Assembly (NCBI RefSeq): GCF_913063105.1
Contig: NZ_CAJXYQ010000006.1
Coordinates: forward strand, 186,001 to 250,000
Direction of reading: 5' to 3'
Origin: an uncultured Draconibacterium sp.
GTDB taxonomy: Bacteria > Bacteroidota > Bacteroidia > Bacteroidales > Prolixibacteraceae
Length of the DNA stretch: 64,000 nt
Shown: positions 1 to 17,190 of the stretch, piece after piece
Numbering within the stretch: position 1 is the first letter of the stretch
Layout: every line of letters begins with the position of its first letter
Notes under the pieces: model-generated
Told to the model about the DNA's origin: nothing
Database searches by the model: none
What the model saw: only the letters and a program-made list of their open reading frames with translations
Position numbers and translations under genes: made by a program

Positions 1-2213
<2,213 letters not shown>

Positions 2214-2338
2214 AAAAAGTACTATAGTTGTCGGCAACAACTGAGCATGCCTTTAAACAAAGCGGGAAAGAGTATTATTTTCCGGATTGTACAAAAAAGA
2301 CAAGGGGAAATGGAAGGAATAACTACAAGCTGGTTAAA

Positions 2339-2767
2339 TCAGTTCTCCGGTGGTTCAATAATTTTTGGAGGATTAAGCCTGCTCCTTTTTTCAATAGTTA
2401 ACAAGCCATACGAAGCCCGAAGTCCATAAATAGCCTGCACCTTTAGGCCGGTTTCAAATTTATAATAGCCAATAGTTGCGACAGCTATGGCTTTTAACTG
2501 TTCTTCAGTTGCAGGAGTGTTGTCAACCAGAGCAACGGGAAGTATAAGATGTGTACCCGAAAGCCCTTCAGAAACATGGTACAAATAGCTTAAATTCAGA
2601 GCTAAATCAAAAGCCGTTTCCACCTTTCGAATCTGATAATCAACGAGTGCTATTTTAGTTGTTTTAACAGGTAAGGAAAAATCGCGGATAACACGTGCTT
2701 GTTCTTGTGCCACCGCTTTAATTGATAAAAAGCAACACAGTAAAATCAACAGTTTTTTTTGCATCAT
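2339..2767 (-). CDS. Small exported protein of unknown function
   Basis: 142 residues. The N-terminus is a clear Sec signal peptide (MMQKKLLILLCCFLSIKAVAQ) with a likely cut after AVA-Q near residue 20. The mature part is about 120 residues with alternating hydrophobic and polar stretches and no recognised motif; the tail is basic and proline-containing (RLNPPKIIEPPEN). It probably acts in the periplasm or on the cell surface. It lies between katG and the GH43 gene with large gaps on both sides, so context says little. The signal peptide makes me accept it as a real gene. No function is proposed. Confidence 0.6.
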   Translation of the reverse strand: MMQKKLLILLCCFLSIKAVAQEQARVIRDFSLPVKTTKIALVDYQIRKVETAFDLALNLSYLYHVSEGLSGTHLILPVALVDNTPATEEQLKAIAVATIGYYKFETGLKVQAIYGLRASYGLLTIEKRSRLNPPKIIEPPEN

Positions 2768-3258
2768 TTTATATTTAGTGTCAGTTTATGTGTGGTACTG
2801 CAAAATAAAACTATAAAAAAAACAGACTCGCTCAACCATGTGGCTTCCCGGTTAATAAACAGATAGAGAAAAAGGTTGCTTATGCAACCTTTTCTAGTTT
2901 GAGTAAATTGTTTATGTAAGGAAAAACGGACAATCTGCTTGTTTTTGCACCACACCTTAGAAAACTTATTGTGCGACAACCTTTTAAAACTCCGGCAGAC
3001 CAACAACATTAATAAGGGTAATTATTATTCAGATACAAGTTATGGAAATAGAAAACAATTAAAAAGAGACTAAATAGTATTTAATTAAAATTTAACAATT
3101 TTAATCTTTCCACTGCTATTTCAATGAAACGTATATAAGCCACTGGGGTTAACTAAAGGCAAAAACAAATAGAAAGCAAATAATAGCAGCCTTTACTAAA
3201 ACCAGCCCATCGGTAAAGGAAAAACCTTTGCTTTGTTTATTTTTACGATAAAAAACAT
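2768..3258. other. 491-bp intergenic region
   Basis: This separates a minus-strand exported protein from a plus-strand GH43 lipoprotein. Apart from the stem-loop at 2870-2893 it is AT-rich and holds no convincing reading frame, tRNA or exact TAnnTTTG promoter. The segment just before 3259 has TATTTTTA, one mismatch from the -7 element. Confidence 0.5.
2870..2893. terminator. Perfect 10-bp stem-loop with T-tracts on both sides
   Basis: AAAAGGTTGC (2870-2879), loop TTAT, GCAACCTTTT (2884-2893). The stem is perfect and works as an intrinsic terminator in either direction. It is not at the end of any recognised gene: it lies about 100 bp upstream of the minus-strand exported protein, and the next plus-strand gene starts at 3259. 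Confidence 0.6.
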
Positions 3259-4197
3259 ATGAAACAGTTATTTTACTTTATCCTATTGCTCATACTTGCC
3301 ACCGGCTGCCAACCCAAAGAAAATAGTACGAAAGTATATCTGTTTTCGTATTTTAAAGATAACGGACAAGACGGGCTACACCTGGCCTACAGTTACGATG
3401 GCTACCGCTTTGTTGCACTAAACAACGATTCGTCAATTCTGACCCCCCAGGTAGCCGATGATCGTTTAATGCGCGATCCTTGCATAATTAAAGGCCCTGA
3501 CAATAAATTTCATATGGTTTGGACGGTTAGTTGGAATGACCGGGGAATTGGATATGCCTGGTCCGAAGATTTGATTCACTGGTCTGATCAAAAATTTATT
3601 CCCGTAATGCAGCATGAGCCTACGGCACGCAACTGCTGGGCTCCGGAACTATTTTATGATGAAGTAGAGCAACAATATATGATTTACTGGGCCACAACTA
3701 TTCCCAATCGTTTTAAGTCTGGCGAAACACAGGGCGACAGCAATTATAATCACCGGATGTATTTTACCACCACAAAAGACTTTACCGATTTTAGTCCAAC
3801 TCAACTTTTATACAACGAAGATTTTAATGTAATTGATGCGGTGATAAAAAAGATTAATAACGAATACCTAATGTTTTTAAAAGATGAAACCCGTAATCCG
3901 GCAAGAAAGCACATACGTATCGCAAAAAGTACTTCGTTATATGGTGGGTATAAACTTGCTTCGCCACCAATTTCTCCGGACTGGGTTGAAGGGCCAACCG
4001 TAACAAAAGTAAATAATTGGTGGGTTGTTTATTACGATGAATATACGCGCCACCATATGGGAGCTATTCGATCGGCCGATTTAATTAATTGGGAGACAAT
4101 AAACGACAGCATTAGTTTTCCTGAAGGAACCCGGCATGGAACAATATTCAAAGCAGAGGAGCGCACACTGAACGATTTAATCGAAGCATTTGATTAA
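3259..4197 (+). CDS. Glycoside hydrolase family 43-type lipoprotein
   Basis: Predicted surface or periplasmic glycosidase (beta-xylosidase, arabinosidase or galactanase type). It has 312 residues with a lipoprotein signal ending LATGC, lipid Cys 17. The rest fits one five-bladed propeller. The three acidic residues expected of GH43 can be placed: base D73 in MRDPCI, pKa modulator D193 in NVIDAV, and acid E244 in WVEGPTV. The segment HEPTARNCWAPELFYDE is typical of the family. It is not part of a visible polysaccharide-utilisation locus: there is no SusC/SusD nearby, and the next gene is convergent. The family is confident; the substrate is not known. Confidence 0.85.
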   Translation: MKQLFYFILLLILATGCQPKENSTKVYLFSYFKDNGQDGLHLAYSYDGYRFVALNNDSSILTPQVADDRLMRDPCIIKGPDNKFHMVWTVSWNDRGIGYAWSEDLIHWSDQKFIPVMQHEPTARNCWAPELFYDEVEQQYMIYWATTIPNRFKSGETQGDSNYNHRMYFTTTKDFTDFSPTQLLYNEDFNVIDAVIKKINNEYLMFLKDETRNPARKHIRIAKSTSLYGGYKLASPPISPDWVEGPTVTKVNNWWVVYYDEYTRHHMGAIRSADLINWETINDSISFPEGTRHGTIFKAEERTLNDLIEAFD

Positions 4198-4268
4198 AAG
4201 AACAGCATCTACGCTCGAGCTTAGAGCGAGCCCTAAAATCACCAAAAATTAACTATTGAAATTTACTT

Positions 4269-5636
4269 TTAGTCCAGAAATTTACTGTAAGTGATTCGCA
4301 TTTCCACACCATCATTTTTTGCACTTTTCATCACTACCCTGTTGGCAATATCAACACGGCGTCCGGTGGTTAGGAAAAAGCCCTGATTACCTACAAAATC
4401 GTCATCTTCCGGGTCGGTTACATCAATTATACGTTGTACGTGCTGCGTAATATTAAAGCTGTAGGAATAATCGCTGGTATCAAGATATCCGCCATAAAAA
4501 ACAGGATTAAAGAAGTAATCTATCGGGCGGTACTCTTCTTCGTCTGGTGCCACAAAAGTAAACATCAATTGCGATGGTGGCGGATAATTGTGAATATCGC
4601 TTTTAACGGTATCAACATGAAATACTATTTCAGCTTTATTGATTCCCATATTTGTAGAGTCTTTCCAGTTTTCAAGTCCCGATATGGTTATTCTTGATTT
4701 TAAGCCACCCGTTGGCTGCACATAAACCACATCGTCTTCCACATCTTCCTGGTCCAGATGATCAAAAAATGGTGTGCCCGTATAATCGTGTTCTATTCCA
4801 CTAATACGTGCACTGTAATCGGTAATTAAAAAAGCTCGCGAGAGGGTATCGGGCGATTCACCTTCTTCCAAATCCATGTTTTCATCGTTGTTGTAATACA
4901 CCAGCAAAGCCGACCCCTGAAAAGTACTGGTTGCCATCGTATGCAAAGTTATTAATGCCCCTTTACCGCTTACATCTTCGCTCTCAATAAAAAGTCCTTT
5001 AAAATATTGCAAAAATACATCGTTATTAATTAAATCAAGCGAATCGGCATAAACCAGCTTTTCTCCAAGCGAATTATCGAGTGGAATGGTTAGCATTTGG
5101 AAATTGGTATCCTGAGTGGCAGAATCGAGTTCAACTTTTGGTGTAAAATCAAACTCTGCCAAGGGCACATCTGAAGCCATTGATTTTAAATCAATATCCT
5201 GCGTATATTCCGCATCCGGATCGAGATACGTTTCCAGTTCATAAACCTTAATATGCTGCTGGGTTAATGTATCTCCATATACATTTCGATAAAAAATATA
5301 TAATCGTACCGAATCAACTACCGGATTAGTACCAAAATCAGGGTAAGAAGTTAAACGAAACTGAGCGGCATAATCAACGGTCGTTTTCCCAAAAACGGGA
5401 TCGTTAAATGTTCCCAGCAAGTTGTAATCCGATTTGTTTGAAACAATACCATTCTCGGTAAAGGTAAATGACGAGATTTTATCGGAAACCGAAATGTTCC
5501 GGACATTAATTAGATCTTCTTTGGGCAAAATACCCAAACCTAAATCGTTTTCGTCGCTGTTGCAGGCTACCAAAGCACTAACAAGAATTAATAAACCACT
5601 AAAGGCTTTTAATAATTGCGTTCTACTATATTTCAT
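4269..5636 (-). CDS. DUF4270 family lipoprotein
   Basis: 455 residues with a lipobox SALVAC (Cys 25) followed by NSDENDLGLGILP, characteristic of the DUF4270 family found throughout Bacteroidota. The mature protein is rich in beta strand and acidic residues, with segments such as DSVRLYIFYRN. No catalytic motif is seen. It is probably exported to the outer membrane. It lies downstream of the glycogen-synthase-like gene on the same strand, 203 bp away, an arrangement seen in related genomes, so the two may be co-expressed. The function of the family is not established. Confidence 0.88.
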   Translation of the reverse strand: MKYSRTQLLKAFSGLLILVSALVACNSDENDLGLGILPKEDLINVRNISVSDKISSFTFTENGIVSNKSDYNLLGTFNDPVFGKTTVDYAAQFRLTSYPDFGTNPVVDSVRLYIFYRNVYGDTLTQQHIKVYELETYLDPDAEYTQDIDLKSMASDVPLAEFDFTPKVELDSATQDTNFQMLTIPLDNSLGEKLVYADSLDLINNDVFLQYFKGLFIESEDVSGKGALITLHTMATSTFQGSALLVYYNNDENMDLEEGESPDTLSRAFLITDYSARISGIEHDYTGTPFFDHLDQEDVEDDVVYVQPTGGLKSRITISGLENWKDSTNMGINKAEIVFHVDTVKSDIHNYPPPSQLMFTFVAPDEEEYRPIDYFFNPVFYGGYLDTSDYSYSFNITQHVQRIIDVTDPEDDDFVGNQGFFLTTGRRVDIANRVVMKSAKNDGVEMRITYSKFLD

Positions 5637-5839
5637 GTTAACTTTTCCAATTTAATAAAAGGAAGCTTCACACACTGTAGCCAATGCAGTTTCGCAAACT
5701 AAAACAGTTATGGTTGCTTCGTCAATTTTCTGAATTCTGAAAAACTTCACAAACATAGAAAATTACGGCGTAAGCTTTTCTGAAATTCCGGCAAAATTGA
5801 ACTTTTTAAATATAATTTTGATTCTTTAACACCGTAATC

Positions 5840-6640
5840 TTACACTTTATCGTAAAACTCGTTGTATGCGTCAATGTATGTTTCTTTTGGCTGATAATCA
5901 AGAAACAGCTTACCGTTCTCCTGGATGTAGTTTTTTACATCGGGATTAATGTTTTCCGATCCCTGAATAACCGCATCAGAATAACCGATGGCCATCTTGC
6001 TAACGTTTGCAAATGTAGGATCTTCAATACCTTTTACATCATCGGCAGTAATGCCTTCGAGTAGTAATTTTTCGTTAAACTTACTATCCAGGGTCTTTTT
6101 AAAATCGTCGTTATAAACCGAATACACCAACTTCGAATTCTGGAATAACGGATCGTTATAATAATACTTTTTAATGTAAAGTGGCACCAACGAGGTAAGC
6201 CATCCGTGACAGTGAATAATATCCGGTGCCCAACGCAACTTAATTACGGTTTCGAGAACACCACGCGCAAAAAACACCGCACGTTCATCATTATCCTCAA
6301 ACTCGTTTCCATCGGCATCGTGCAATACCGCTTTTCGCTGAAAATAATCTTCGTTGTCAATAAAATACACCTGCATACGTGCAGCTTGTATCGATGCAAC
6401 TTTTATGATAAGCGGATGGTCGGTATCGTTAATCACAAGGTTCATACCCGATAAACGGATCACCTCGTGCAACTGATTTCTTCGCTCGTTAACACAGCCA
6501 TAGCGTGGCATAAATGTTCTTATCTCTCTCCCCTTTTCCTGCACGCCCTGTGGCAGGTAACGTGCAATTTCCGACATCTCGCTTTCAGGCAGGTAAGGAG
6601 TAATTTCTTGTGAAATATAAAGGATTCTTTTCTTTTCCAT
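5840..6640 (-). CDS. Glycogen/starch synthase N-terminal-domain protein (short, degenerate)
   Basis: 266 residues from ATG 6640 (MEKKRILYISQEITPYLPE). An upstream in-frame start at 6733 would add a hydrophobic tail that crosses the promoter, so I reject it. The protein matches only the N-terminal Rossmann half of GT5 glycogen synthases (IIHCHGWLTSLVPLYIKKYY is typical); the family's usual length is about 480. The N-terminal KxGGL ADP-glucose motif is missing: at that place the sequence reads PESEMSEIARYLPQG. The C-terminal GT-B half is absent. Short versions of this kind beside panC recur in Bacteroidota, so this is probably a conserved non-canonical protein and not a fresh truncation. Glycogen synthesis should not be assumed. 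Confidence 0.8.
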   Translation of the reverse strand: MEKKRILYISQEITPYLPESEMSEIARYLPQGVQEKGREIRTFMPRYGCVNERRNQLHEVIRLSGMNLVINDTDHPLIIKVASIQAARMQVYFIDNEDYFQRKAVLHDADGNEFEDNDERAVFFARGVLETVIKLRWAPDIIHCHGWLTSLVPLYIKKYYYNDPLFQNSKLVYSVYNDDFKKTLDSKFNEKLLLEGITADDVKGIEDPTFANVSKMAIGYSDAVIQGSENINPDVKNYIQENGKLFLDYQPKETYIDAYNEFYDKV

Positions 6641-6670
6641 GAACCAATAAGTGCAGTTAAAAACAGGGTG

Positions 6671-6700
6671 CAAAAGTAATAAAAATAAACGAATTGTCAA
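6671..6700 (-). promoter_or_regulatory. Promoter for the glycogen-synthase-like gene
   Basis: On the minus strand TTG (6700-6698), a 19-bp spacer, then TACTTTTG (6678-6671) match the Bacteroidota -33/-7 consensus exactly, with the ATG at 6640 about 31 nt downstream of the -7 box. Confidence 0.75.
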
Positions 6701-6737
6701 GTTAAGTTGGTTAGCTTCAGCCAGTATCATCACTTTT

Positions 6738-6771
6738 TTTGATGTTTTAACAATTAAAATTACTTACTTTG
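6738..6771 (+). promoter_or_regulatory. Promoter for panC-panD
   Basis: TTTG (6738-6741), a 22-bp spacer, then TTACTTTG (6764-6771), one mismatch from TAnnTTTG, followed by GCAGCC as at metG. The panC ATG is 20 nt further on. With the divergent promoter at 6671-6700 it forms a back-to-back pair about 40 bp apart. Confidence 0.6.
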
Positions 6772-6790
6772 CAGCCGCAAAAATTCAGGG

Positions 6791-7627
6791 ATGAAACTGC
6801 TTACTACAGTAAACGACTTACAATTTGAGATACAACAACTTGGAGCTGAAAGCCAGGTTGGTTTTGTACCTACCATGGGGGCACTCCATGCGGGGCATAT
6901 TTCGCTGGTTAAACAGGCGGTAAAAGAAAATCGTATTGTAGTGGTAAGTATTTTTGTAAACCCCACCCAGTTTAACGATGCGAAAGACCTTGAACGTTAC
7001 CCACGTACGCTCGAAAACGATATGCACCTGCTGGAACCAACAGGTTGTGCCATTGTGTTTGCTCCTAATGCCAAAGAAGTTTACCCCGAACCGGATAAAC
7101 GTAAATTTAACTTTGGAAAATTGGAAGAGGTGATGGAAGGCAAACATCGCCCGGGGCACTTTAATGGTGTGGCCCAGGTGGTTAGCCGTCTTTTCGACAT
7201 GGTAAAACCTGCAAAAGCCTACTTCGGATTAAAGGATTTTCAGCAACTGGCCATTGTTAAAAATATGGTAAAACAACTGCAACTTCCGGTGGAAATTGTA
7301 CCTTGCGCCATTATTCGCGAAAAAAGTGGTTTGGCCATGAGCTCGCGAAATGAATTATTGACAGAAGAACAGCGGAAAAATGCAGCCGTAATTTCAGAGA
7401 CTTTATTTAAAGCCAAAGAACTTAAAGCGCAAAATTCCGTACAAGAAATCGTGGATTGGGTGACAGAAACGATAAACAAGAACCCCTTCCTTGATGTTGA
7501 ATATTTTGAGATTGTTGACGACGAACAGCTGCAACCGGTGAAGAACTGGGAGAAAGATTCGACAAAAGTTGGATGTGTTGCAGTTTTTTGCGGCGAAATC
7601 CGACTAATTGACAATATAGTTTTTTAA
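6791..7627 (+). CDS. panC: Pantothenate synthetase
   Basis: Condenses pantoate and beta-alanine with ATP to give pantothenate, in the cytoplasm, as part of CoA synthesis. 278 residues, full length. The nucleotidyltransferase signature [10 protein letters not shown] spans residues 27-36; NPTQF, LKDFQQ and AMSSRNELL follow in the right order. The C-terminal segment ends [11 protein letters not shown]. panD follows after 19 bp and should be co-transcribed. A copy of the last 43 codons of this gene recurs at 10548-10676. Confidence 0.97.
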
Positions 7628-7646
7628 GACCGAAATAAGCATAGTT

Positions 7647-7997
7647 ATGCAAATTGAAGTTTGTAAATCGAAAATACACAAGGTTACCGTTACCGAGGCA
7701 AACCTGCAATATGTGGGAAGTATCACCATCGACGAGGATTTGATGGATGCGGCAAACCTTATTGAGAACGAAAAAGTTCAGGTTGTTAATATTAACAACG
7801 GAGAGCGCCTGGAGACGTATGTAATTAGGGGCGAACGCGGAACGGGAACAATCTGTTTGAACGGACCGGCTGCACGTAAAGTTGCTGTTGGCGACGTGGT
7901 AATTATCATTTCGTATGCATTGATGGATTTTGAAGAGGCTAAAACTTTTAAGCCCAGTCTTATTTTCCCCGATATTGAAACAAACAGTATTGTTTAA
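7647..7997 (+). CDS. panD: Aspartate 1-decarboxylase (copy 1)
   Basis: Pyruvoyl enzyme that makes beta-alanine from aspartate for the PanC reaction. 116 residues, as usual. The self-cleavage pair G24-S25 (QYVGSITID) is intact, as are K9, R54, Y58 and the [15 protein letters not shown] stretch. It lies 19 bp after panC and is followed by an intrinsic terminator. A second copy lies at 10696-11046: 109 of 116 residues are identical. This copy keeps the conserved Gly at position 65 and is the canonical one. Confidence 0.97.
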
Positions 7998-8025
7998 ACT
8001 GATAAATGTTTTTTAAAAAGATAAT

Positions 8026-8058
8026 ACCTCGTGGCTGAAAAACCACGAGGTGTTTTAT
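8026..8058. terminator. Terminator after panD copy 1
   Basis: ACCTCGTGG (8026-8034), 8-nt loop, CCACGAGGT (8043-8051), then TGTTTTATTT. It also lies just past the end of the minus-strand GH3 gene and may serve both. Its 5' arm recurs in the terminator of panD copy 2. Confidence 0.85.
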
Positions 8059-8068
8059 TTATAGCCGC

Positions 8069-10408
8069 TTAATTAACTGCTATTTTTGTCTGCAAACGAA
8101 TATCGTCAGATGAAGCGCCAATCATTAGTTGAAAACTACCTGGTTCAAGAACACGGTCCAGCTCTTTATTTACAATTGATAAATCATCAGGTGTTAGTGT
8201 AAACCGGATTGTAGTTTCTTCCTGTTTTTTCAAATAAAACCGTTTAAAATGTTTTAACTGTTTCAGGGGTTGCACCATCGAAGCAAATTCGTCTCTGATA
8301 TACAATTGTACTACTTCTTCACCATCGTAATTTCCGGTGTTTTTTACTACAAACGCAATCTCAAACTCATTGTTAGCCTGTTTTTTTACTTGTAAGTTTT
8401 GATATGCGAAAGTTGTAAAACTAAGTCCGTAGCCAAAAGTGTAAAGTGGTGTTGCGGCAATCTCAACATAAGCGTGTGCATTCGGATTTTTTTTGTTGTA
8501 GTATACAGGAACCTGCCCAACGTTTCGGGGAACAGAAATCGGCAACCGTCCTGCCGGATTATAATCTCCAAATAAAATATCTGCTATCGCATTTCCCCCT
8601 TCTTGCCCCGGGTACCAGGCGTTTAATAATGCATCTGCATTTTGTGCAGCCCAATTCATGTTAAGTGGTCGGCCTTCAATATAAACAACAATTAATGGTT
8701 TGCCGGTTGCTTTTATTGCTTTTAACAAATTCATTTGGAAACCAAGTAATTCAAGAGTTGCCCGGTCAAAACCTTCACCACATTCCATGTCGCTTATTGT
8801 GTTGGAAGAGGCAATTGCTGCTCCGGTATTCTGATAACTGGTTTTAAAGTCGCGGGCACTCGATCCACCTACAGCAACAAGCACTGCATCTGCACTTTGG
8901 GCCGCTTCAACGGCTTCCGAAATATTTTGCCGGCTGGTATCTCTAATGGAACAGCCTTTAACGTAACTTACATTCTCCTTCCCAATTTTTGAAATAACAC
9001 CCTCTAAAATGGTAATTACATTACTGTCTTCCTGAGGTGCAGTATAGTCGCCAAGCATATTGTAGCGGTTGTGTGCATTGGGGCCAATAACAGCAATTTT
9101 GCCTATCGTTTTCTTTAACGGAAGAGTGTTGTTGTCATTTTTCAGCAGTACAACCGATTGTTGTGCAGCCTTTCGTGCAACAGCTATATTAGCTTGTGTT
9201 CGTACATTCAGTTTTGCTTTTTCAGCATCGACATATGGATTTTCAAACAGCCCCATTTCAAACTTTAAACGAAGTACCCGGTATGCAGCTGAATCAATCA
9301 GTTCTTCTTTAATTCGTGAGTCTTTAACAGCCTCAATAAGTTTTATGTAGGCGTCACCACCCAAATCAACATCAACACCTGCAGTTAGAGCTTGAATGGC
9401 CGCATCCTGAATAGTTGGAGCGACAAAATGACTGCCATGAATTCCTTCAATACTGTATAGATCGGATACTGCAAATCCTGAAAAATGCCAATCTTTTTGT
9501 AAAATGTCGCGATACAAATAAGAATTTGCTGTACATGGAATACCATCAATCGAATTATACGAGGTCATTACCGACAAAGCACCCGCTTCAATTGCAGCTT
9601 TAAAAGGAGGCAGAAAACTCTGATGTATCTCGTGAATTCCTACCGACGAAGCATTTCCATTTTGACCGCTAATGGGAACTCCATAGGCAATAAAATGTTT
9701 TAATGTTGAAATGGTACTGCTTTCATTTGAGAGGTCTCCTGCACCTTCGCCTTTAACAATCGCAGCTCCAAGTTTTGCTGCTAATACCGGGTCTTCTCCG
9801 TATGTTTCTTCAACTCTCGACCAACGTGCATCGCGTGCCAAATCAAGTACGGGACCGTAGGCAATGTGTGCTCCCTGTAAGCGAATTTCACTGGCCATTA
9901 CTGCTCCAACTTCGGTTAAAAGTTCTTCCGACCAGCTTGATGCCAATCCTATACCGGTAGGAAAAACAGTTGTTCCAATTGCCATGTGTCCATGTGGACT
10001 TTCTTCAGCCAAAAAAAGTGGAATCCCCAAACGGGTGTTTTCTAAAATATACTGCTGAAAGGCATTTCCCGCTTTTGCAGCCAACTCCGGATTTAAACCG
10101 TTCTCCAGTGTTTTCTGTGTCCACGGATCAGCGCGGTAAGCCGCCCAAAGCATGCCGATGTGTTGCTCTTTTAAAATCGTTTTAAATTTCTCAGAACAAC
10201 TAACATCATCGCCGTTTCGTTCGTACATTTCCCAACCAAGGGAACAGAGCAATTGGCCTACTTTTTCTTCCAGTGTCATCCGTGAAAGCAAATCCTGAGT
10301 CCGTTCATCGGCACTTAGAGTGGAATTTTTATAGGGTTGAGCCTGAGCAGTTGAAGCCAAAGTAAGTAGAATAAAAAGTATAAAGTATAATGTATGACAT
10401 TTTTTCAT
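8069..10408 (-). CDS. Glycoside hydrolase family 3 beta-glucosidase, exported
   Basis: Hydrolyses terminal beta-linked glucose or xylose from oligosaccharides, probably in the periplasm. 779 residues with a signal peptide cut near STAQAQ (residue 24). The order is GH3 N-terminal barrel (about 40-370), C-terminal domain (about 420-640) and fibronectin III-like domain (about 680-770). The nucleophile is D316 in GFAVSDLYSIEG. The KHFIAYG stretch and the AEESPHGH stretch are typical. It resembles BglX in layout. It has no partner genes and sits, on the opposite strand, between the two panD copies; its position is discussed in the findings. The family is certain, the specificity inferred. Confidence 0.93.
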   Translation of the reverse strand: MKKCHTLYFILFILLTLASTAQAQPYKNSTLSADERTQDLLSRMTLEEKVGQLLCSLGWEMYERNGDDVSCSEKFKTILKEQHIGMLWAAYRADPWTQKTLENGLNPELAAKAGNAFQQYILENTRLGIPLFLAEESPHGHMAIGTTVFPTGIGLASSWSEELLTEVGAVMASEIRLQGAHIAYGPVLDLARDARWSRVEETYGEDPVLAAKLGAAIVKGEGAGDLSNESSTISTLKHFIAYGVPISGQNGNASSVGIHEIHQSFLPPFKAAIEAGALSVMTSYNSIDGIPCTANSYLYRDILQKDWHFSGFAVSDLYSIEGIHGSHFVAPTIQDAAIQALTAGVDVDLGGDAYIKLIEAVKDSRIKEELIDSAAYRVLRLKFEMGLFENPYVDAEKAKLNVRTQANIAVARKAAQQSVVLLKNDNNTLPLKKTIGKIAVIGPNAHNRYNMLGDYTAPQEDSNVITILEGVISKIGKENVSYVKGCSIRDTSRQNISEAVEAAQSADAVLVAVGGSSARDFKTSYQNTGAAIASSNTISDMECGEGFDRATLELLGFQMNLLKAIKATGKPLIVVYIEGRPLNMNWAAQNADALLNAWYPGQEGGNAIADILFGDYNPAGRLPISVPRNVGQVPVYYNKKNPNAHAYVEIAATPLYTFGYGLSFTTFAYQNLQVKKQANNEFEIAFVVKNTGNYDGEEVVQLYIRDEFASMVQPLKQLKHFKRFYLKKQEETTIRFTLTPDDLSIVNKELDRVLEPGSFQLMIGASSDDIRLQTKIAVN

Positions 10409-10547
10409 AAAACCTGAATTTTATAATTTTCGTTAAAGATGGGAAGATATTCTTAAATAATTTAAAAAGTGGTTTTGTTTGTAGTAATTCTACATGTTTT
10501 GTTAAAACACCAAATTTAATTTTGAGCACCTATGAGTAAAAAGTCTA

Positions 10548-10676
10548 AAATATTTTGAGCCTGTTGACGACGAACAGCTGCAACCGGTGAAAAACTGGGA
10601 CGAAAAATCGACAAAAGTTGGGTGTGTTGCTGCTTTTTGCGGAAAGATCAGGTTAATTGACAATATAGTTTTTTAA
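10548..10676 (+). pseudogene. Relic of the panC 3' end
   Basis: 43 codons reading [18 protein letters not shown]... to IRLIDNIVF and a stop match the C-terminus of the complete panC (7499-7627) with only a few substitutions. Homology stops abruptly at the 5' end and there is no start codon or N-terminal domain. The 19 bp between its stop and the second panD are identical to those at copy 1. Confidence 0.9.
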
Positions 10677-10695
10677 GACCGAAATAAGCATAGTT

Positions 10696-11046
10696 ATGCA
10701 AATTGAAGTATGTAAATCGAAAATACACAAGGATACCGTTACTGAAGCAAACCTGCAATATGTTGGAAGTATCACCATCGACGAGGATTTGATGGATGTG
10801 GCAAACCTTATTGAGAACGAAAAAGTACAGGTTGTTAATATTAACAACGGAGAGCGTTTAGAGACTTATGTTATCAGAGGCGAGCGCGAATCGGGTACCA
10901 TTTGTTTGAATGGTTCGGCTGCACGTAAAGTGGCTGTTGGCGATGTGGTAATTATCATTTCGTACGCCTTAATGGATTTCGAGGAAGCCAAAACATTTAA
11001 GCCAAGTTTGATCTTCCCCGATATTGAAACCAATACTGTAGTATAA
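10696..11046 (+). CDS. panD: Aspartate 1-decarboxylase (copy 2)
   Basis: Second panD, 116 residues, 109 identical to copy 1. The cleavage site G24-S25, K9, R54 and Y58 are kept. The changes are V13D, A35V, G65E, T66S, P74S, S114T and I115V; G65 lies in the normally conserved ERG(S/T)G loop, so activity may be altered. In codons 1-53 only 7 codons differ from copy 1, but in codons 54-116 about 33 do, nearly all silently. It is preceded by a panC relic and not by a complete panC, so its promoter is unclear. The intact frame and the synonymous bias indicate that it has been under selection. Confidence 0.93.
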
Positions 11047-11067
11047 AATACGTTACATATAAATATG

Positions 11068-11099
11068 AACCTCGTGGTTTTTACTGCGAGGTTTTTTTA
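11068..11099 (+). terminator. Terminator after panD copy 2
   Basis: AACCTCG (11068-11074) and CGAGGTT (11087-11093) followed by TTTTTT. The 5' arm with its flank (ACCTCGTGG) is shared with the copy 1 terminator, so the duplicated block includes it. Confidence 0.85.
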
Positions 11100-11142
11100 T
11101 TTGGTGGTATCTCTGTCAATAAATGAGCCTATTATATAAAAC

Positions 11143-11841
11143 CTATCTATTCTTTCCTAATGGAACACCCAGACGAATACCGAGTTGCAAAAACTCCGTA
11201 CTACCCGAATAATCCTCAAAAACTCCGGTTTCAGCGATGGGCAAATCATTTAAACTTCTTCCTAAATCAACCTTCTCCCACCCTACGTAAAACGACACGG
11301 AAAGGTCTTCGGCAATAACTTTAAACCCTAGATGAAAGCCCGGATACCAATTAAAAGATGACTTTGAGCTTCCAAGGTAATTTTCTTCCTCGGTCTCTTC
11401 GTTTCCAAAAGTGGCGTTACTTTTTGAGCTTTCAAATCCCAGATTCACGTCGGCAAAAAAGTAAATAATATCAGATAATTCCTGGTAAAACCGCGGACAC
11501 AGGCTAAGTGTATAATAACTGGCTTCGGTAAACAGTATATAATCATCGCCATAAGGAACGATTTCACCACCAATGGGCTTTTCTTTTTCATGAGAATTCA
11601 TACCCACTTGTCCCTTCAACTCCAATGCAAACTTTCTCGACACGAAATATTCATATCCCGCCCCGAAGTAAAATCCAAAATCATCATTATCCAATACAAA
11701 TGCATTCGTACCTAAATCAAAATTTATATTGGTCGGGAATTTTTCGTCTTGCGCATTACATTTTTTGCTTACTAAGCATAGACTACAAAGGGAACCCAGG
11801 AATAAAATTATGCCAATGTGTTTCACGAATAGTTTTAACAT
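11143..11841 (-). CDS. Outer-membrane beta-barrel protein (porin-like), unknown role
   Basis: 232 residues with a signal peptide (cut near KCNAQ, residue 31). The mature part has the alternating pattern of a small 8-stranded barrel: FGFYFGAGYEYFVSRKFALELKGQVG, then paired strands, ending in LQLGIRLGVPLG. No enzyme motif is seen. This is the OmpA/OprF-like beta-barrel type widespread in Bacteroidota. It is isolated between panD copy 2 (convergent) and the heptose adenylyltransferase (divergent). Confidence 0.75.
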   Translation of the reverse strand: MLKLFVKHIGIILFLGSLCSLCLVSKKCNAQDEKFPTNINFDLGTNAFVLDNDDFGFYFGAGYEYFVSRKFALELKGQVGMNSHEKEKPIGGEIVPYGDDYILFTEASYYTLSLCPRFYQELSDIIYFFADVNLGFESSKSNATFGNEETEEENYLGSSKSSFNWYPGFHLGFKVIAEDLSVSFYVGWEKVDLGRSLNDLPIAETGVFEDYSGSTEFLQLGIRLGVPLGKNR

Positions 11842-12047
11842 TTCTGATAAAGTTTAATTTTTACTGCTCGGGGTAAAGCTTTCTATTAAAAAAATGCGTG
11901 AAGCAGTCGAAAGGGGTTACCCGAATAAGGTCCGCAAATTAAAAAAATTATCCCCCTTTAAAGAATTTGAACATAAAATAATATAAGACAAGCTGGTCTT
12001 TAAGTCAAGGTTTTATCTCAATTAAAATATTAAAAGGAATTAATCAC

Positions 12048-12055
12048 TATTTTTG
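12048..12055 (+). promoter_or_regulatory. Candidate -7 element
   Basis: TATTTTTG is an exact TAnnTTTG match. It ends 6 nt before ATG 12062, so transcripts would have almost no leader unless ATG 12071 is used. No clear -33 box is seen. Confidence 0.4.
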
Positions 12056-12061
12056 ACAGAT

Positions 12062-12550
12062 ATGAATCTAATGTCTAAATCAAAAATATTTCGTGATTTT
12101 GAATCGTTTTATCCCCTGCTATCCATTTGGAAAGGAAGCAACAATACCATCGTTTTTACCAACGGATGTTTCGATCTTATTCATAACGGGCACGTTGATT
12201 CGCTGCATAAATCGGCAGCATTTGGCACCAAATTGATTGTTGGATTAAACTCCGATGTTTCGGTAAAACTATTAAAAGGCGATAAGCGCCCCATTTTAAA
12301 CGAACAGGCACGCGCCGAAGTGTTGGCTGCCTTTGAATGTGTTGATGCGGTAATTCTTTTTGATGAAGAAACGCCGGCCGAGATTATTGCAAAAATTATC
12401 CCCGATGTTTTGGTAAAAGGCGCGCAATACGAAATTCATGAAATTGCAGGCCACGATACCGTACTGAACAACGGAGGAAAGGTGGAAATACTGGAATTGA
12501 TAGAAGGAATTTCAACCAGCGAAATAATAGACAGAATTAAAAACCTTTGA
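12062..12550 (+). CDS. rfaE2: D-glycero-beta-D-manno-heptose 1-phosphate adenylyltransferase
   Basis: Transfers AMP to heptose 1-phosphate to give ADP-heptose for LPS core synthesis; it corresponds to the C-terminal half of HldE. 162 residues from ATG 12062. ATG 12071 is an alternative and a TTG further upstream is unlikely. The nucleotidyltransferase motif is TNGCFDLIHNGH (HNGH at 41-44) and the C-terminal ISTSEIIDRI is typical of this family. The kinase half (RfaE1) is not in the window. radA follows after a 67-bp gap that contains a repeat-like element. Confidence 0.92.
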   Translation: MNLMSKSKIFRDFESFYPLLSIWKGSNNTIVFTNGCFDLIHNGHVDSLHKSAAFGTKLIVGLNSDVSVKLLKGDKRPILNEQARAEVLAAFECVDAVILFDEETPAEIIAKIIPDVLVKGAQYEIHEIAGHDTVLNNGGKVEILELIEGISTSEIIDRIKNL

Positions 12551-12594
12551 GAAACTTTGCGAAACCTTAGTGTTCTTTGTGGTTAACTCTTTTC
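12549..12594 (+). repeat. Member of a dispersed intergenic repeat family
   Basis: The stretch between rfaE2 and radA (AACTTTGCGAAACC... TTCTTTGTGGTTAA) resembles the element at 58514-58566, sharing the ACTTAG-GT-TTTG-GGTTAA framework. It is a partial copy without a good hairpin. Confidence 0.5.
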
Positions 12595-12617
12595 TTACAA
12601 ACAAAGTAGTTTACAAA

Positions 12618-13976
12618 ATGGCAAAAACAAAAACCATATACACCTGTCAGAATTGCGGCGCACAATCGCCAAAATGGTTAGGGAAATGCTCTACCTGCAA
12701 CGAGTGGAACACCTACGTTGAGGAGATTGTAGAAAAGAAACAATCTACCGGTAAACTTTCGGTGCAGATTTCAGGAAACCAACCCATCACACTCGAGAAT
12801 ATTGAAATGGCCCGGACCGAACGCATTTCGGTCGGTATTGAAGAATTTAACCGTGTTTTGGGAGGCGGAATCGTTCCCGGCTCGCTGATACTTTTAGGTG
12901 GCGATCCCGGAATTGGAAAATCAACGCTGGCGCTGCAGCTGGCACTGGGGTTAAACGGTAAAAAAATATTATACATCTCAGGCGAGGAGAGCCTGCAACA
13001 AATAAAATTGCGCGCCGAACGTTTGAGCAACTCCCAAAGCAACTGCCTGTTTTTAAGCGAAACTTCGCTGGAACATATTATCGCACAAAGCGAGCAGGCA
13101 AAACCGGAGTTGCTGATTATCGACTCCATTCAAACCATTTCAACCGAACTGATTGAGTCGTCGCCCGGCTCGGTTGGGCAGGTTCGCGAGTGTACTTCGG
13201 CAATTCTAAAGTTTGCCAAAAAAAATCATGTTGCCGTGGTGCTGATTGGGCACATTACCAAGGAAGGTAGTCTTGCCGGACCAAAAGTGCTGGAACACAT
13301 GGTCGACACGGTTTTGCAGTTTGAAGGCGATACCAATTATATGTACCGCATTTTGCGCTCGAACAAAAACCGCTTTGGCTCCACCAACGAACTCGGCATT
13401 TTTGAAATGCGCAGCGACGGGTTGCGCGAAATCACCAATCCTTCAGAGCAATTAATTTCAAAAGTAAGCGACGATGTTAGCGGAACAGCCATTGCAGCAA
13501 CCGTTGAAGGTGTGCGCCCTTTCCTGATCGAAATTCAGGCACTGGTAAGTTCGGCGGCTTACGGCACGCCACAGCGCTCATCAACCGGTTTTGATTTACG
13601 ACGCCTGAACATGTTGTTGGCAGTTCTGGAGAAACGGGCAGGTTTTAAACTCATTGCCAAAGACGTGTTCCTAAATATTGCCGGCGGGCTAAAAATTAAC
13701 GATCCTGCTACCGATCTGGCAGTAATTTGTTCCATTCTTTCGTCGAATATCGACATTGCCATTAACCACAAAATATGTTTTGCCGGTGAGGTTGGATTAA
13801 CCGGAGAAATTCGTGCCGTAAGCCGCATAGAGCAGCGCATTGCCGAAGCCGCAAAACTGGGTTTTACGCGTATTTATGTACCATCGCTCAACAAAGGTTT
13901 CGATGCATCTAAGTTTAAAATCGACATTGTAAAGGTTAGCCGGGTAGAAGAAGTATTCAAAACGATTTTTGCGTAA
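12618..13976 (+). CDS. radA: DNA repair protein RadA
   Basis: RecA-like ATPase that helps branch migration in recombinational repair. 452 residues from ATG 12618 (MAKTKTIYTC); an upstream in-frame ATG at 12570 falls in the repeat-like spacer and is not used. The N-terminal zinc finger has C10, C13, C24 and C27. Walker A is GGDPGIGKST (94-103). The RadA-specific motif KNRFGSTNE is present and the C-terminal Lon-protease-like domain is complete. It is cytoplasmic and probably reads through from rfaE2. Confidence 0.97.
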   Translation: MAKTKTIYTCQNCGAQSPKWLGKCSTCNEWNTYVEEIVEKKQSTGKLSVQISGNQPITLENIEMARTERISVGIEEFNRVLGGGIVPGSLILLGGDPGIGKSTLALQLALGLNGKKILYISGEESLQQIKLRAERLSNSQSNCLFLSETSLEHIIAQSEQAKPELLIIDSIQTISTELIESSPGSVGQVRECTSAILKFAKKNHVAVVLIGHITKEGSLAGPKVLEHMVDTVLQFEGDTNYMYRILRSNKNRFGSTNELGIFEMRSDGLREITNPSEQLISKVSDDVSGTAIAATVEGVRPFLIEIQALVSSAAYGTPQRSSTGFDLRRLNMLLAVLEKRAGFKLIAKDVFLNIAGGLKINDPATDLAVICSILSSNIDIAINHKICFAGEVGLTGEIRAVSRIEQRIAEAAKLGFTRIYVPSLNKGFDASKFKIDIVKVSRVEEVFKTIFA

Positions 13977-13981
13977 AATAA

Positions 13982-14064
13982 TTTCTCGCAGATTACGCAG
14001 ATGAACGCAGAAAAACTGAACACAAGCTTATAAAATCAGCGTTATTTGCGAAATCAGCGAGAAA
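13982..14064. repeat. Long imperfect intergenic stem-loop (REP-like)
   Basis: The outer arms TTTCTCGC (13982-13989) and GCGAGAAA (14057-14064) pair perfectly. The inner arms GATTACGCAGATGAACGC and GCGTTATTTGCGAAATC pair with a few mismatches. The wording CGCAGATTACGCAGATGAACGCAG is of a kind I recognise as a widespread intergenic repeat in Bacteroidota and other phyla. It lies between radA and the DUF4296 gene. Confidence 0.7.
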
Positions 14065-14150
14065 CATTCGGTAAAACAGTAGAAATAAGCTTTTTTAACG
14101 ACCATTTTTTTGAAAAACGATTTAACTATTTATAATTTGGCAGCCACAAA

Positions 14151-14537
14151 ATGAAAAAGGCTTTTCTCATATTATTCGCACTGGTTTTCGCATTTATTGC
14201 TTGCGAAGAAGAAGTAATAACCAAACCCGAACACCTGCTAAAAGAAAAAAGGATGATTGAAATGCTGGTGGATGTTCATCTGGCAGAAGCTACCTACACC
14301 CAGTTCAGGTACGATTCCATCATGCTCAATAACAGCTCCGAAAATTTCTACTATTCGGTACTCGATAAACATGCCGTGACCGATTCTGTTTTCGAACAAT
14401 CGCTGGTTTATTACGCCAGTAAACCAAAAGACTTTGAAAAAATGTACCGCAAGGTAATGAGTCGTTTAAGCGAGATTGAACAAGAACGATCGGGACGTAA
14501 AGAGGAGCTTCTGAAATTTGAAGAAGAAAAACAATAA
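14151..14537 (+). CDS. DUF4296 family lipoprotein
   Basis: 128 residues; the lipoprotein signal ends AFIAC (Cys 18). The family signature MIEMLVDVHLAEATYTQ is clear, and a charged helical tail (EIEQERSGRKEELLKFEEEKQ) ends the protein. DUF4296 proteins are small Bacteroidota lipoproteins of unknown role. The amidohydrolase gene starts 8 bp after the stop, so the two are co-transcribed. Confidence 0.88.
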   Translation: MKKAFLILFALVFAFIACEEEVITKPEHLLKEKRMIEMLVDVHLAEATYTQFRYDSIMLNNSSENFYYSVLDKHAVTDSVFEQSLVYYASKPKDFEKMYRKVMSRLSEIEQERSGRKEELLKFEEEKQ

Positions 14538-14545
14538 GCAACAAG

Positions 14546-15736
14546 GTGAGGAAAATCGCCGCTACATACGTCTTCCCCGGAAATGGCTCTATAATAAAAA
14601 ACGGAATTTTAGTTTGCAACGATAAAGGAAAAATTCTCGAAATCCTGGATCGGGGCGCCAACTTTAAAGAAGAAGCCGGTGTTGAATTTTATAGTGGCAT
14701 TTTAGTACCCGGTTTTGTAAACACACATTGCCATTTAGAGCTATCGCACCTGCAAAACAAAGTCCCCGAGAAAGCAGGGATAGGCAATTTTTTACAGCAG
14801 ATTCATTCTTTGCGCAAGACTGAGAGCAGCTCGGAAAAGGTAATGCAGGTAAGCGATCGGAAAATGTGGGCTGCAGGCATTGCCGCAGTTGGCGATATAT
14901 CAAATACAGATGCTTCGTTACCAATAAAAGCAAAAAGCAAAATTTACTACCATACTTTTATTGAAGTTTTTGGGTTTCACCCAACAAGAGCCGAGCGCGC
15001 CTTTTTAGAAGCCCAAGAAATTCTATCGAAATTTGAGAAATCCCGACTTTCTGCATCCATCGTTCCGCATTCAGGCTATTCCGTTTCGCCCGAGCTTTTT
15101 AAAAAAGTACAGCAGCATACATTTGAAAAAGAAAGCCTGTTCTGCATCCATAACCAGGAAAGCAAGGCCGAATCAGCGTTTTTTTTATCGGGTACGGGAG
15201 CAATCGCCAAACATTTTAGCGACAATTTAAATCTTGAAACCAATCATTGGCAGCCTACAGGAAAATCTTCTTTACAATCAATATTACAATTTATTCCGAA
15301 AAACAATCAGCTGCTGTTGGTACACAATACACATACTACCAAAGAAGATATTGAAGCAATAAAACAGTACCGAAAACTGGCCGACACCTATTTTGTTCTA
15401 TGTCCAAATTCCAATCTGTTTATCGAGAATAAAATCCCGAACCTTCAGCTTTTTCGCGAAGAAAAACTGAATATCTGTTTGGGAACCGACAGCCTTGCTT
15501 CCAACTCCCAGCTTTCCATATTGCAGGAAATTCAAGTTCTTCAGCAAAATTTTCCTGAGATTGAACTGGATGAACTGATTACATGGTCGTGCCTGAATGG
15601 TGCCCGGGCACTTCAAATTGAAAATGCCTTTGGCTCTTTTGACAAAGGAAAAACCCCCGGTGTAAACCTGATAACAGGAATCGATTTCAGGACCATGAAA
15701 CTAAGACCCAACGCAAAAGTTAAACGTTTGCTGTAG
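14546..15736 (+). CDS. Amidohydrolase (SsnA/chlorohydrolase-like, COG0402 type)
   Basis: Metal-dependent hydrolase, probably a deaminase of a purine-like or related heterocycle. 396 residues starting at GTG 14546; no good ATG lies nearby. The metal site is built from NTHCHLE, IVPHSGYSVSP, LLLVHNTHT and LGTDSLASN, in the usual order for this family. The N- and C-terminal beta-sandwich segments (PGNGSIIKNGILVCNDKG... and PGVNLITGID) are present. A role as aminodeoxyfutalosine deaminase in menaquinone synthesis is possible, but no other futalosine-pathway gene is here. The family is certain, the substrate is not. Confidence 0.85.
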   Translation: MRKIAATYVFPGNGSIIKNGILVCNDKGKILEILDRGANFKEEAGVEFYSGILVPGFVNTHCHLELSHLQNKVPEKAGIGNFLQQIHSLRKTESSSEKVMQVSDRKMWAAGIAAVGDISNTDASLPIKAKSKIYYHTFIEVFGFHPTRAERAFLEAQEILSKFEKSRLSASIVPHSGYSVSPELFKKVQQHTFEKESLFCIHNQESKAESAFFLSGTGAIAKHFSDNLNLETNHWQPTGKSSLQSILQFIPKNNQLLLVHNTHTTKEDIEAIKQYRKLADTYFVLCPNSNLFIENKIPNLQLFREEKLNICLGTDSLASNSQLSILQEIQVLQQNFPEIELDELITWSCLNGARALQIENAFGSFDKGKTPGVNLITGIDFRTMKLRPNAKVKRLL

Positions 15737-15787: not shown

Positions 15788-16801
15788 ATGATAAAAATTG
15801 GCAAAATAGAACTGGAAGGCACTCCGCTGTTTTTGGCACCGATGGAAGACGTTACCTATAAATCGTTTAGGCTGATGTGCAAAAAATTTGGTGCCGATGT
15901 AATGTATACCGAATTTGTTTCGTCGGAGGCACTGGTGCGTAATATTGATAAAACAAAACAAAAAATGCACCTCTATGATTTTGATCGTCCGGTTGCGATT
16001 CAGATTTATGGCCACAATATCGATTCGATGGTAAGGGCAGCGCAAGTGGCTGAAGAGTTTGAGCCCGATTTTATCGATATTAATTATGGGTGCCCAATGA
16101 AAAAGATAGTTCGGCATGGCGCTGGCTCGGCCATGTTAAAGGATTTGCCCAAAATGCAACAAATGACTGCAGAAATTGTAAAGGCGGTAAAAACTCCCGT
16201 TACCGCCAAAACACGTCTGGGCTGGTCGGCCGGCAATACCCCAATTGTTGAAGTAGCCGAGCGCTTGCAGGATGCCGGGGTTCAGGCACTAGCCGTACAT
16301 GGCCGAACACGCGAGCAATTGTATACCGGCGAAGCTGACTGGACACTGATTGGTGAGGTAAAAAACAATCCCCGAATACAGATTCCGATTATCGGGAATG
16401 GTGATATCAACAGCGGTAAAAAGGCGAAACAACTGCTCAACCAAACCGGCGTTGACGCCCTGATGATTGGCCGTGGAGCCATAGGTCGCCCCTGGCTGTT
16501 CCGCGAGGTAAAACACTACCTGCAAACAGGGGAAGAATTGCCACAACCTACGGTTAACGAAGTAGTTGAAATTTTAAAAGAACAACTGCGCTTAAATCTG
16601 GAATGGCGCAACGAGCGATCGGGGATTTTAATGATGCGCCGGCATTTTGCAAAATACTTCCCGGGATTACCAAATTTCAGGGAGCTGAAAGTGAAGCTTT
16701 TGCGTGCCGAAACCAATGAAGAGATACACCATACTCTGGAAAAAATTACTGAAGAATACGGAAATTATTCCCTTGATTTTTCAAATGCCAGCTTAAAATA
16801 A
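15788..16801 (+). CDS. dusB: tRNA-dihydrouridine synthase DusB
   Basis: FMN enzyme that reduces uridines in the tRNA D-loop. 337 residues. LAPMEDVTYKSFR opens the TIM barrel; the catalytic Cys is C102 in INYGCPMKKIVRHGAGSAML. AKTRLGW, HGRTREQLYTGEADW, GNGDI and IGRGAIGRPW follow in family order. It is cytoplasmic. It lies 51 bp after the amidohydrolase with its own candidate promoter, and the YkvA-like gene follows after 8 bp. Confidence 0.96.
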   Translation: MIKIGKIELEGTPLFLAPMEDVTYKSFRLMCKKFGADVMYTEFVSSEALVRNIDKTKQKMHLYDFDRPVAIQIYGHNIDSMVRAAQVAEEFEPDFIDINYGCPMKKIVRHGAGSAMLKDLPKMQQMTAEIVKAVKTPVTAKTRLGWSAGNTPIVEVAERLQDAGVQALAVHGRTREQLYTGEADWTLIGEVKNNPRIQIPIIGNGDINSGKKAKQLLNQTGVDALMIGRGAIGRPWLFREVKHYLQTGEELPQPTVNEVVEILKEQLRLNLEWRNERSGILMMRRHFAKYFPGLPNFRELKVKLLRAETNEEIHHTLEKITEEYGNYSLDFSNASLK

Positions 16802-16809
16802 GCAATACC

Positions 16810-17190
16810 ATGGACAAAAAATATTCACAGCACTTTTCAGAAAAATCGCTTTGGGATAAATTGAAGCAATTTGGTAAAACAGCAGGTGCAAAGGTGGTTT
16901 ATGCCGTATTGCTGTTGCTTTATACTTTCCAGGATAAAGGAGTAAGCACCAAAACCAAACTAAGCATTGCGGCAGCATTGGGTTATTTTATTTTGCCAAC
17001 CGATGCAATTATAGACCTGACACCTATAATTGGCTACAGCGATGATTTGGGCGTATTATTGTTCACGCTGTCGGCTGTGGCTACCAGTATTACCCCTGAA
17101 ATTAAGGCGAAAGCCCGTAAAAAAGCACACGAATGGTTTGGCGCAATTGACCCCCAGGAACTCAACGATATTGATAATCAGACATTTTAA
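16810..17190 (+). CDS. YkvA/DUF1232 family small membrane protein
   Basis: 126 residues. The DUF1232 core (KLSIAAALGYFILPTDAIIDLTPIIGYSDDLGVL, about residues 50-84) contains the conserved LPxDxIPD-like motif in the form LPTDAIIDLTP. Two hydrophobic segments (about 32-47 and 54-66) suggest membrane association. The tail is basic (KAKARKKAHEWFG). The function of the family is not established. It is close behind dusB and probably co-transcribed. Confidence 0.85.
   Translation: MDKKYSQHFSEKSLWDKLKQFGKTAGAKVVYAVLLLLYTFQDKGVSTKTKLSIAAALGYFILPTDAIIDLTPIIGYSDDLGVLLFTLSAVATSITPEIKAKARKKAHEWFGAIDPQELNDIDNQTF

What the first reader, a model, noticed from the sequence alone, without database searches (positions are those of the whole stretch)
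7499..11099. Mosaic duplication of the panC 3' end and panD
The block 7499-8058 (panC tail, panD, terminator) recurs at 10548-11099. The 19 bp between the panC stop and panD are identical and codons 1-53 of panD differ in 7 codons only, but codons 54-116 differ in about 33, nearly all at silent positions. A plain old duplication would give even divergence. The pattern suggests recombination or gene conversion between a local copy and a copy from a relative, with a boundary near codon 53.
Basis: seen in the sequence. Interest (0 to 1): 0.7.

Follow-up and report, generated by a model that had tools for sequence, protein, structure and literature searches.

The report
Interspecies recombination scar duplicating panD
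A vitamin-pathway gene (panD) appears twice because DNA from related species, carrying a sugar-degrading enzyme gene, was stitched in beside it with one matched and one mismatched joint; the case is clear, but the kind of event is already known.

Summary
The repeat is real: 7500-7997 (panC tail, 19-nt spacer, panD) recurs at 10549-11046; the terminators after the copies are not duplicates. The codon counts, 7 of 53 and 33 of 63, are exact, but the inference fails: 42 of 55 panD ortholog pairs in the nearest clade (N, 11 genomes) are uneven in the same direction, so codon 53 marks no boundary. Recombination is supported by other evidence: in copy 1, not copy 2, at about codon 90 (codons 88-96, LLR 29.5). 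From there to about 10548 the DNA (panD 3' end, GH3 gene, spacer, first 8 codons of a second rfaE) resembles a more distant congener, G008, with gene order panD-GH3-rfaE. GH3 is 13.2% from G008, against 23.3% for G008-G006. At 10549-10555 this segment meets a truncated panC tail over about 6-9 bp of microhomology. A same-species genome shares the arrangement. This fits homology-facilitated illegitimate recombination plus later exchange around copy 2. Order of events, true donor and uptake route stay open. Copy 2 looks relaxed: 5 of 7 private changes nonsynonymous against 5 of 37 in N.

The parts
6791..7627 (+). panC, pantoate--beta-alanine ligase, intact
   Evidence: TIGR00018 313.7 bits, PF02569. 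nt 1-300 well outside clade N, nt 301-708 close to it
7647..7997 (+). panD copy 1: chimera, 5' part near clade N, 3' part G008-type from about codon 90
   Evidence: TIGR00223 163.9 bits; changepoint nt 269, interval 261-287
7908..7934 (+). interval of the left switch, inferred homologous joint
   Evidence: changepoint likelihood, LLR 29.5; site list
8026..8051 (+). terminator-like hairpin of copy 1; stem as in G008, loop reversed
   Evidence: sequence; plus/minus match 33 of 36 to G008
8069..10408 (-). GH3 glycoside hydrolase gene carried by the foreign-type segment
   Evidence: PF00933, PF01915, PF14310; best NCBIfam match BglX, 559 bits, below its cut-off of 666; 91% aa to G008, where it also sits just after panD
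10409..10531 (+). spacer of G008 type upstream of the second rfaE start
   Evidence: blastn to G008 up to window 10518; after that about 32 nt fewer than G008, judged by eye
10532..10558 (+). second rfaE start, 8 codons, ended by a TGA formed at the joint
   Evidence: compared by eye with rfaE starts of 17 relatives
10549..10555 (.). illegitimate joint: AATATTT shared by rfaE starts and panC codons 237-239
   Evidence: sequences of both copies and relatives
10549..10676 (+). truncated panC tail relic
10696..11046 (+). panD copy 2, full length, no switch; mostly N-type with some copy-1 alleles; excess of private nonsynonymous changes
   Evidence: TIGR00223 158.7 bits
11068..11098 (+). terminator-like hairpin of copy 2
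   Evidence: sequence; similar hairpins beside panD, seen in reverse complement, in 5 N loci printed (L003, L010-L013)
11143..11841 (-). beta-barrel-like outer-membrane protein gene that lies next to panD in 6 of 19 relatives
   Evidence: PF13505 25.4 bits, below its cut-off of 28.7
12053..12550 (+). intact rfaE (heptose 1-phosphate adenylyltransferase), nested in clade N
   Evidence: TIGR02199 182.9 bits, cut-off 181.5; tree

Best explanation
The doublet is a recombination joint between DNA of at least two congeneric lineages, not a plain old duplication. A segment of G008 type (panD from about codon 90, its terminator, GH3, the spacer and the first 8 codons of rfaE) is joined on its left to panD of the other type within aligned panD sequence (homologous recombination, inferred), and on its right to panC codons 237-239 at about 6-9 bp of microhomology (illegitimate recombination, inferred from the joint). 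Because the right joint lies further upstream in gene order than the left one, the panC tail and the 5' part of panD occur twice and a whole second panD stands downstream. This is the kind of scar expected of homology-facilitated illegitimate recombination (HFIR). Further exchange with clade N affected pieces of copy 2, the OMP gene and rfaE, differently in the two strains seen. Copy 1, although chimeric, is probably the working panD behind panC; copy 2 is probably redundant and drifting (inference). Which side was the incomer is not settled: either the G008-type segment came last (order A, which needs a joint to a sister chromosome), or the GH3 segment was there first and a clade-N fragment (panC tail-panD-OMP-rfaE) came in beside it (order B, the more usual HFIR geometry). 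The uptake route is unknown. The confidence covers both orders.
For: G008 and G006 have panD-GH3-rfaE and no OMP match between; none of the 11 clade-N stretches has a GH3 match between panD and rfaE (more distant GH3 relatives, 65-68%, lie elsewhere in at least 5 of these genomes). GH3: window-G008 13.2% against G008-G006 23.3%, whereas in 6 of the 7 other genes with both values (u4269, glgA, panC, radA, nx, dus) window-G008 exceeds G008-G006. GH3 and spacer align with G008 at 87% over 2,453 positions. panD copy 1 switches to G008 type at nt 269, LLR 29.5; copy 2 of both strains does not. At the right joint a G008-like rfaE start runs into panC at AATATTT. G061 shares both joints. glgA, amd and dus trees put this species as sister of clade N (N at support 88, 99, 91), the rfaE tree puts the two strains inside N at different places. 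Differences between the strains rise to 5-15% per 300 nt at 10500-11400, 12000-12900 and 13800-14100.
Against: The G008-type stretch of panD is only about 80 nt; its 93-nt tree puts copy 1 outside N plus both copies 2 (support 91) but its node near G008 has support 0. The changepoint model uses ad hoc pseudocounts and was not tested by shuffling. The true donor was not found; G008 is 13% away in GH3. rfaE is the one gene of 7 that goes against the distance pattern (21.0 against 24.7). In the tree of panC tail plus panD nt 1-240 copy 1 itself falls inside N (with G034, support 74), and radA puts the species inside N at support 10, so 'own type' and N type are not cleanly apart here. At 12 sites where copy 1 differs from all 10 N genomes compared, window copy 2 has 9 N and 3 copy-1 alleles, G061 copy 2 has 8 and 4: copy-to-copy conversion may also have happened. 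A microhomology of this length in AT-rich DNA is weak evidence by itself.
Confidence: 0.78

Rival explanations
1. Order B, a version of the best explanation rather than a contradiction of it: the species first received GH3 by ordinary two-sided homologous replacement between panD and rfaE; then a clade-N fragment (panC tail-panD-OMP-rfaE) came in, crossing over homologously in rfaE/radA on the right and joining illegitimately to rfaE codon 8 on the left. The figure is its share of the whole; order A has about the same.
For: Usual HFIR geometry, no sister chromosome needed; explains at one stroke why rfaE and the 3' part of panD copy 2 are N-type.
Against: Both strains' copy 2 carry copy-1 alleles at -134 and +155 from the panD start, and one or the other at -52, 68 and 77, which then need later conversion from copy 1; the two strains' rfaE genes have different nearest N relatives, so more than one N import is needed anyway.
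Confidence: 0.4
2. One reading: local duplication, then gene conversion or recombination of one half of panD with a boundary at codon 53.
For: Uneven divergence between the copies, Fisher p 1.1e-5; some exchange between copies is possible.
Against: 42 of 55 N ortholog pairs are uneven in the same direction; best switch at codon 90 in copy 1, score at codon 53 -0.7; does not explain GH3 and the rfaE start.
Confidence: 0.05
3. A circular donor molecule (panC tail-panD-GH3-rfaE start, closed by microhomology) integrated by a single crossover in panD.
For: Partial duplications ascribed to single crossover of shortened circles were seen in E. coli conjugation (PMC3240628, passages).
Against: Predicts a G008-type panC tail in front of copy 2; it is of copy-1/N type in both strains.
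Confidence: 0.07
4. Assembly or binning artefact.
For: The genome is a 41-contig assembly, 91% complete.
Against: Same arrangement in G061, 5 contigs, 99% complete, with its own copy-2 alleles.
Confidence: 0.01

Closest known systems
Homology-facilitated illegitimate recombination (HFIR), as defined in PMC3240628 (passages)
   Same: One joint in homologous DNA, the other in non-homologous DNA; brings in a new gene beside a core gene.
   Different: HFIR as described there couples insertion with deletion; here a partial duplication results, unless order B holds. Mechanism inferred from the scar only.
T6SS effector-immunity module displacement in Vibrio cholerae (PMC5361080, passages)
   Same: New module anchored by a conserved upstream stretch, old gene shifted downstream and kept; HFIR proposed there too.
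   Different: Here the anchor is a housekeeping gene and the cargo a GH3 gene; the downstream copy is redundant, no immunity role.
Transformation-made merodiploids in Streptococcus pneumoniae (PMC3784515, passages)
   Same: Duplication through interchromatid joining of an incoming fragment; one small (3.3 kb) duplication without flanking repeats is also reported.
   Different: The validated model needs a repeat and gives about 100-900 kb; here about 0.4 kb (panC tail to the panD switch) and a microhomology.

Membership tests
HFIR product | one joint inside homologous DNA | tested here: met
   switch inside panD at codons 88-96
HFIR product | other joint between non-homologous sequences | tested here: met
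   rfaE start to panC codons 237-239, about 6-9 shared bp
HFIR product | insertion coupled with loss of recipient DNA | tested here: inconclusive
   order A gives duplication without loss; order B would have replaced the rest of the first rfaE
HFIR product | arises from linear incoming DNA anchored by homologous recombination | not testable with these tools
   needs experiment
panD (aspartate 1-decarboxylase), both copies | family model above curated cut-off | tested here: met
   TIGR00223 163.9 and 158.7 bits, cut-off 106
panD, both copies | Gly24-Ser25 self-processing site (recalled) | tested here: met
   VGS at residues 23-25 in both translations
panD, both copies | decarboxylase activity | not testable with these tools
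   copy 2 has V13D, A35V, G65E, P74S against N
Mobile element with its own recombinase | integrase or transposase gene in or beside the inserted segment | tested here: not met
   8 translated genes between 5.8 and 14.0 kb were given to Pfam, none hit an integrase or transposase family; other ORFs and shorter ones were not scanned

The most novel reading that the evidence does not exclude
The panD-rfaE gap is a trading slot of this genus: genes (OMP, GH3, others) come and go there by exchange anchored in the two flanking core genes, and the panD doublet is a frozen intermediate of such a swap, one in which the new gene and the old neighbour are both still present.
Probability: 0.35. Interest if true: 0.45.

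Novelty: new member of a known kind. Interest (0 to 1): 0.33.

Why it matters
It is a clear natural example, with genomes of both gene orders at hand, of a core gene serving as the landing strip for a carbohydrate-enzyme gene. It also carries a caution: uneven silent divergence between two paralogs is no evidence of a recombination boundary unless ortholog pairs serve as control.

Tried and rejected
Codon-53 boundary: rejected by the ortholog control. Circular single crossover: disfavoured by the type of the copy-2 panC tail. Assembly artefact: opposed by G061. Mobile element: no integrase or transposase among the 8 genes scanned. A Bacteroidetes-type promoter (motif recalled) for copy 2: no match in the region; 3 matches in the whole window against 5.2 expected, so nothing learnt. 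dprA and the ComEC competence domain are present in the 4 genomes asked but also in 10 of 14 control genomes each, so they do not show competence; a search on competence in Bacteroidetes (listing only) was not used. A literature search for panD/panC duplication with gene conversion showed nothing relevant in the 15 listed of 123; one for microhomology/tandem duplication with horizontal transfer gave 5 papers, none of this case by title; the HFIR search listed 25 of 49.

Dropped or partial rows: the 12 of 31 loci lying on the minus strand were compared without reverse-complementing; their difference counts are meaningless and were not used (only their printed flanks were looked at, as reverse complement); the comparison was redone with oriented sequences. 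Relatives used for distances and trees: 20 of the 33 other genus members with a panD match, fetched, plus G061; 13 were not fetched. G004 (no panC on the contig) is missing from panC counts, G025 (panC cut) from the panC and panD counts. Clade N was defined by me from the distances and trees. In the N total two of the five nonsynonymous changes lie in one codon of G029. Of the 80 named loci only the record titles and contig lengths were used.

Full report
What is there. In the 5.8-14 kb part of the window lie a starch-synthase-like gene (here glgA, -), panC (+), panD copy 1 (+), a GH3 glycoside hydrolase (-), a panC tail relic and panD copy 2 (+), a beta-barrel-like OMP gene (-), rfaE (+) and radA (+) (glgA and radA are my labels). 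u4269, nx, amd and dus below are my working names for the ORFs at 4269-5636, 14151-14537, 14546-15736 and 15788-16801; no call named them. The repeat 7500-7997 / 10549-11046 has a spacing of 3,049 nt.

Among the 11 genomes of the nearest clade (N: G002, G004, G005, G007, G009, G012, G013, G024, G029, G030, G034), 42 of 55 panD pairs have significantly more codon differences in 54-116 than in 1-53, and 13 of 55 have a ratio of at least 33/7. So the step at codon 53 is ordinary for this gene in this clade and cannot show a boundary. Nor is the identical 19-nt spacer telling: 9 of the 10 N genomes shown have the same one. Against N, copy 1 differs on average in 8.8, 14.2 and 18.1 codons in segments 1-53, 54-85 and 86-116, copy 2 in 9.8, 11.1 and 5.9; N-N means are 5.4, 11.6 and 7.6. 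Only the last segment of copy 1 stands out strongly, and there copy 1 is nearer to G008 (11 codons) than to N (18.1).

Where the switch is. A simple changepoint likelihood (N allele frequencies against G008/G006 alleles, ad hoc pseudocounts, no shuffles) puts the switch in copy 1 at nt 269, codon 90, interval codons 88-96, LLR 29.5; copy 2 of either strain shows none. The 93-nt tree of codons 86-116 has N plus both copies 2 together at support 91 and copy 1 outside, near G008 and G006, but the node near G008 has support 0.

What lies behind the switch. G008 and G006, more distant members of the genus, have panD-GH3-rfaE. Of the 20 relatives fetched, 19 have rfaE downstream of panD on the stretch: 6 with the OMP gene between, 2 with GH3, 8 with at most about 150 nt, 3 with something else. 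Of 37 genomes of the genus, only the window's, G061, G008 (87%) and G006 (77%) match the stretch over more than 2,200 nt at 77% or more; G012 has a 68% match of that length at another place, and G004, G007, G013 and G034 have matches of 65-66% over about 1,840 nt. GH3 is 13.2% from G008 while G008 and G006 differ by 23.3%; in 6 of 7 other genes with both values the window is farther from G008 than G006 is, rfaE being the exception. So GH3 most likely came from the G008 lineage, though from no genome held here.

The right joint. Upstream of 10549 the sequence is a G008-like spacer and an rfaE start (ATG at 10532); downstream it is panC from codon 237/238. Both sides share AATATTT (6-9 bp depending on which relative stands for the donor). 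The joint makes a TGA after 8 codons, so no fusion protein.

A second strain. G061, same species, 5 contigs, has the same arrangement and both joints. From 200 to 10500 the strains differ at 0.2-1.4% in most 500-nt bins, with two higher ones (13 and 20 differences at 1000-1500 and 2000-2500), but by 5-15% per 300 nt at 10500-11400, 12000-12900 and 13800-14100; 16800-17100 has 14 of 300. In the rfaE tree they fall at different places inside N (with G034, support 83; with G005, support 81), although glgA, amd and dus show the species as sister of N. radA puts it inside N at support 10 only, and the tree of panC tail plus panD nt 1-240 puts copy 1 inside N with G034 at 74 and both copies 2 together at 89. 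Copy 2, OMP and rfaE have thus probably been hit repeatedly by N-type exchange, and the 5' part of copy 1 is itself close to N.

Order of events. At 12 sites of the duplicated part where copy 1 differs from all 10 N genomes compared, window copy 2 has 9 N and 3 copy-1 alleles, G061 copy 2 has 8 and 4. This fits a duplicate of the resident gene overwritten by N pieces (order A) or an N fragment partly converted by copy 1 (order B). I cannot separate them; order B has the more usual HFIR geometry, order A explains the copy-1 allele at 10562 close to the joint. The core of the explanation, one homologous and one microhomology joint around a G008-type segment, is common to both.

Which copy works. 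Copy 2 has 5 nonsynonymous of 7 private changes (both strains together, G65E shared and counted once) against 5 of 37 over the 11 N genomes, Fisher p 0.004. G65E in both strains suggests that their copies 2 share descent. Copy 1 is 97-99% identical in protein to its best relatives. Copy 1 is probably the working gene; this is inference.

Known or new. HFIR and HFIR-like displacement are described (PMC3240628, PMC5361080, PMC3784515; passages seen; the first HFIR papers were seen only in reference lists). I found no report of a panD case in the listings. It is a new instance of a known kind.

Noticed in passing
6791-7090: panC nt 1-300 differ from clade N by about 24% (N-N about 10%), then the difference drops sharply to about the N level at 7091: another likely recombination edge inside panC.
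   Followed up: partly
8026-8051; L115: The terminator hairpin after panD copy 1 has the same stem as in G008 but the loop is reversed (CTGAAAAA against TTTTTCAG), as if the hairpin had flipped.
   Followed up: no
L142:11702-13768: G061 has two further ORFs (181 and 495 aa) between OMP and rfaE where the window strain has only 287 unaligned nt; the panD-rfaE gap varies within the species.
   Followed up: no
13800-14100: A short block with 42 of 300 positions different between the two strains of the species, at the radA 3' end, with near-identical DNA on both sides.
   Followed up: no
L142, -49 to +49 around panD starts: G061's two copies are identical over about 100 nt around the panC stop and panD start; the window's copies have 6 differences there; 7 of 10 N genomes share the last 37 nt before panD exactly. 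Reason unknown.
   Followed up: no
G010:C33: This genus member's contig has the same length (176,860) as a named record, Maribellus maritimus 5E3, so the window is probably from that genus or its GTDB neighbour in Prolixibacteraceae (inference).
   Followed up: no
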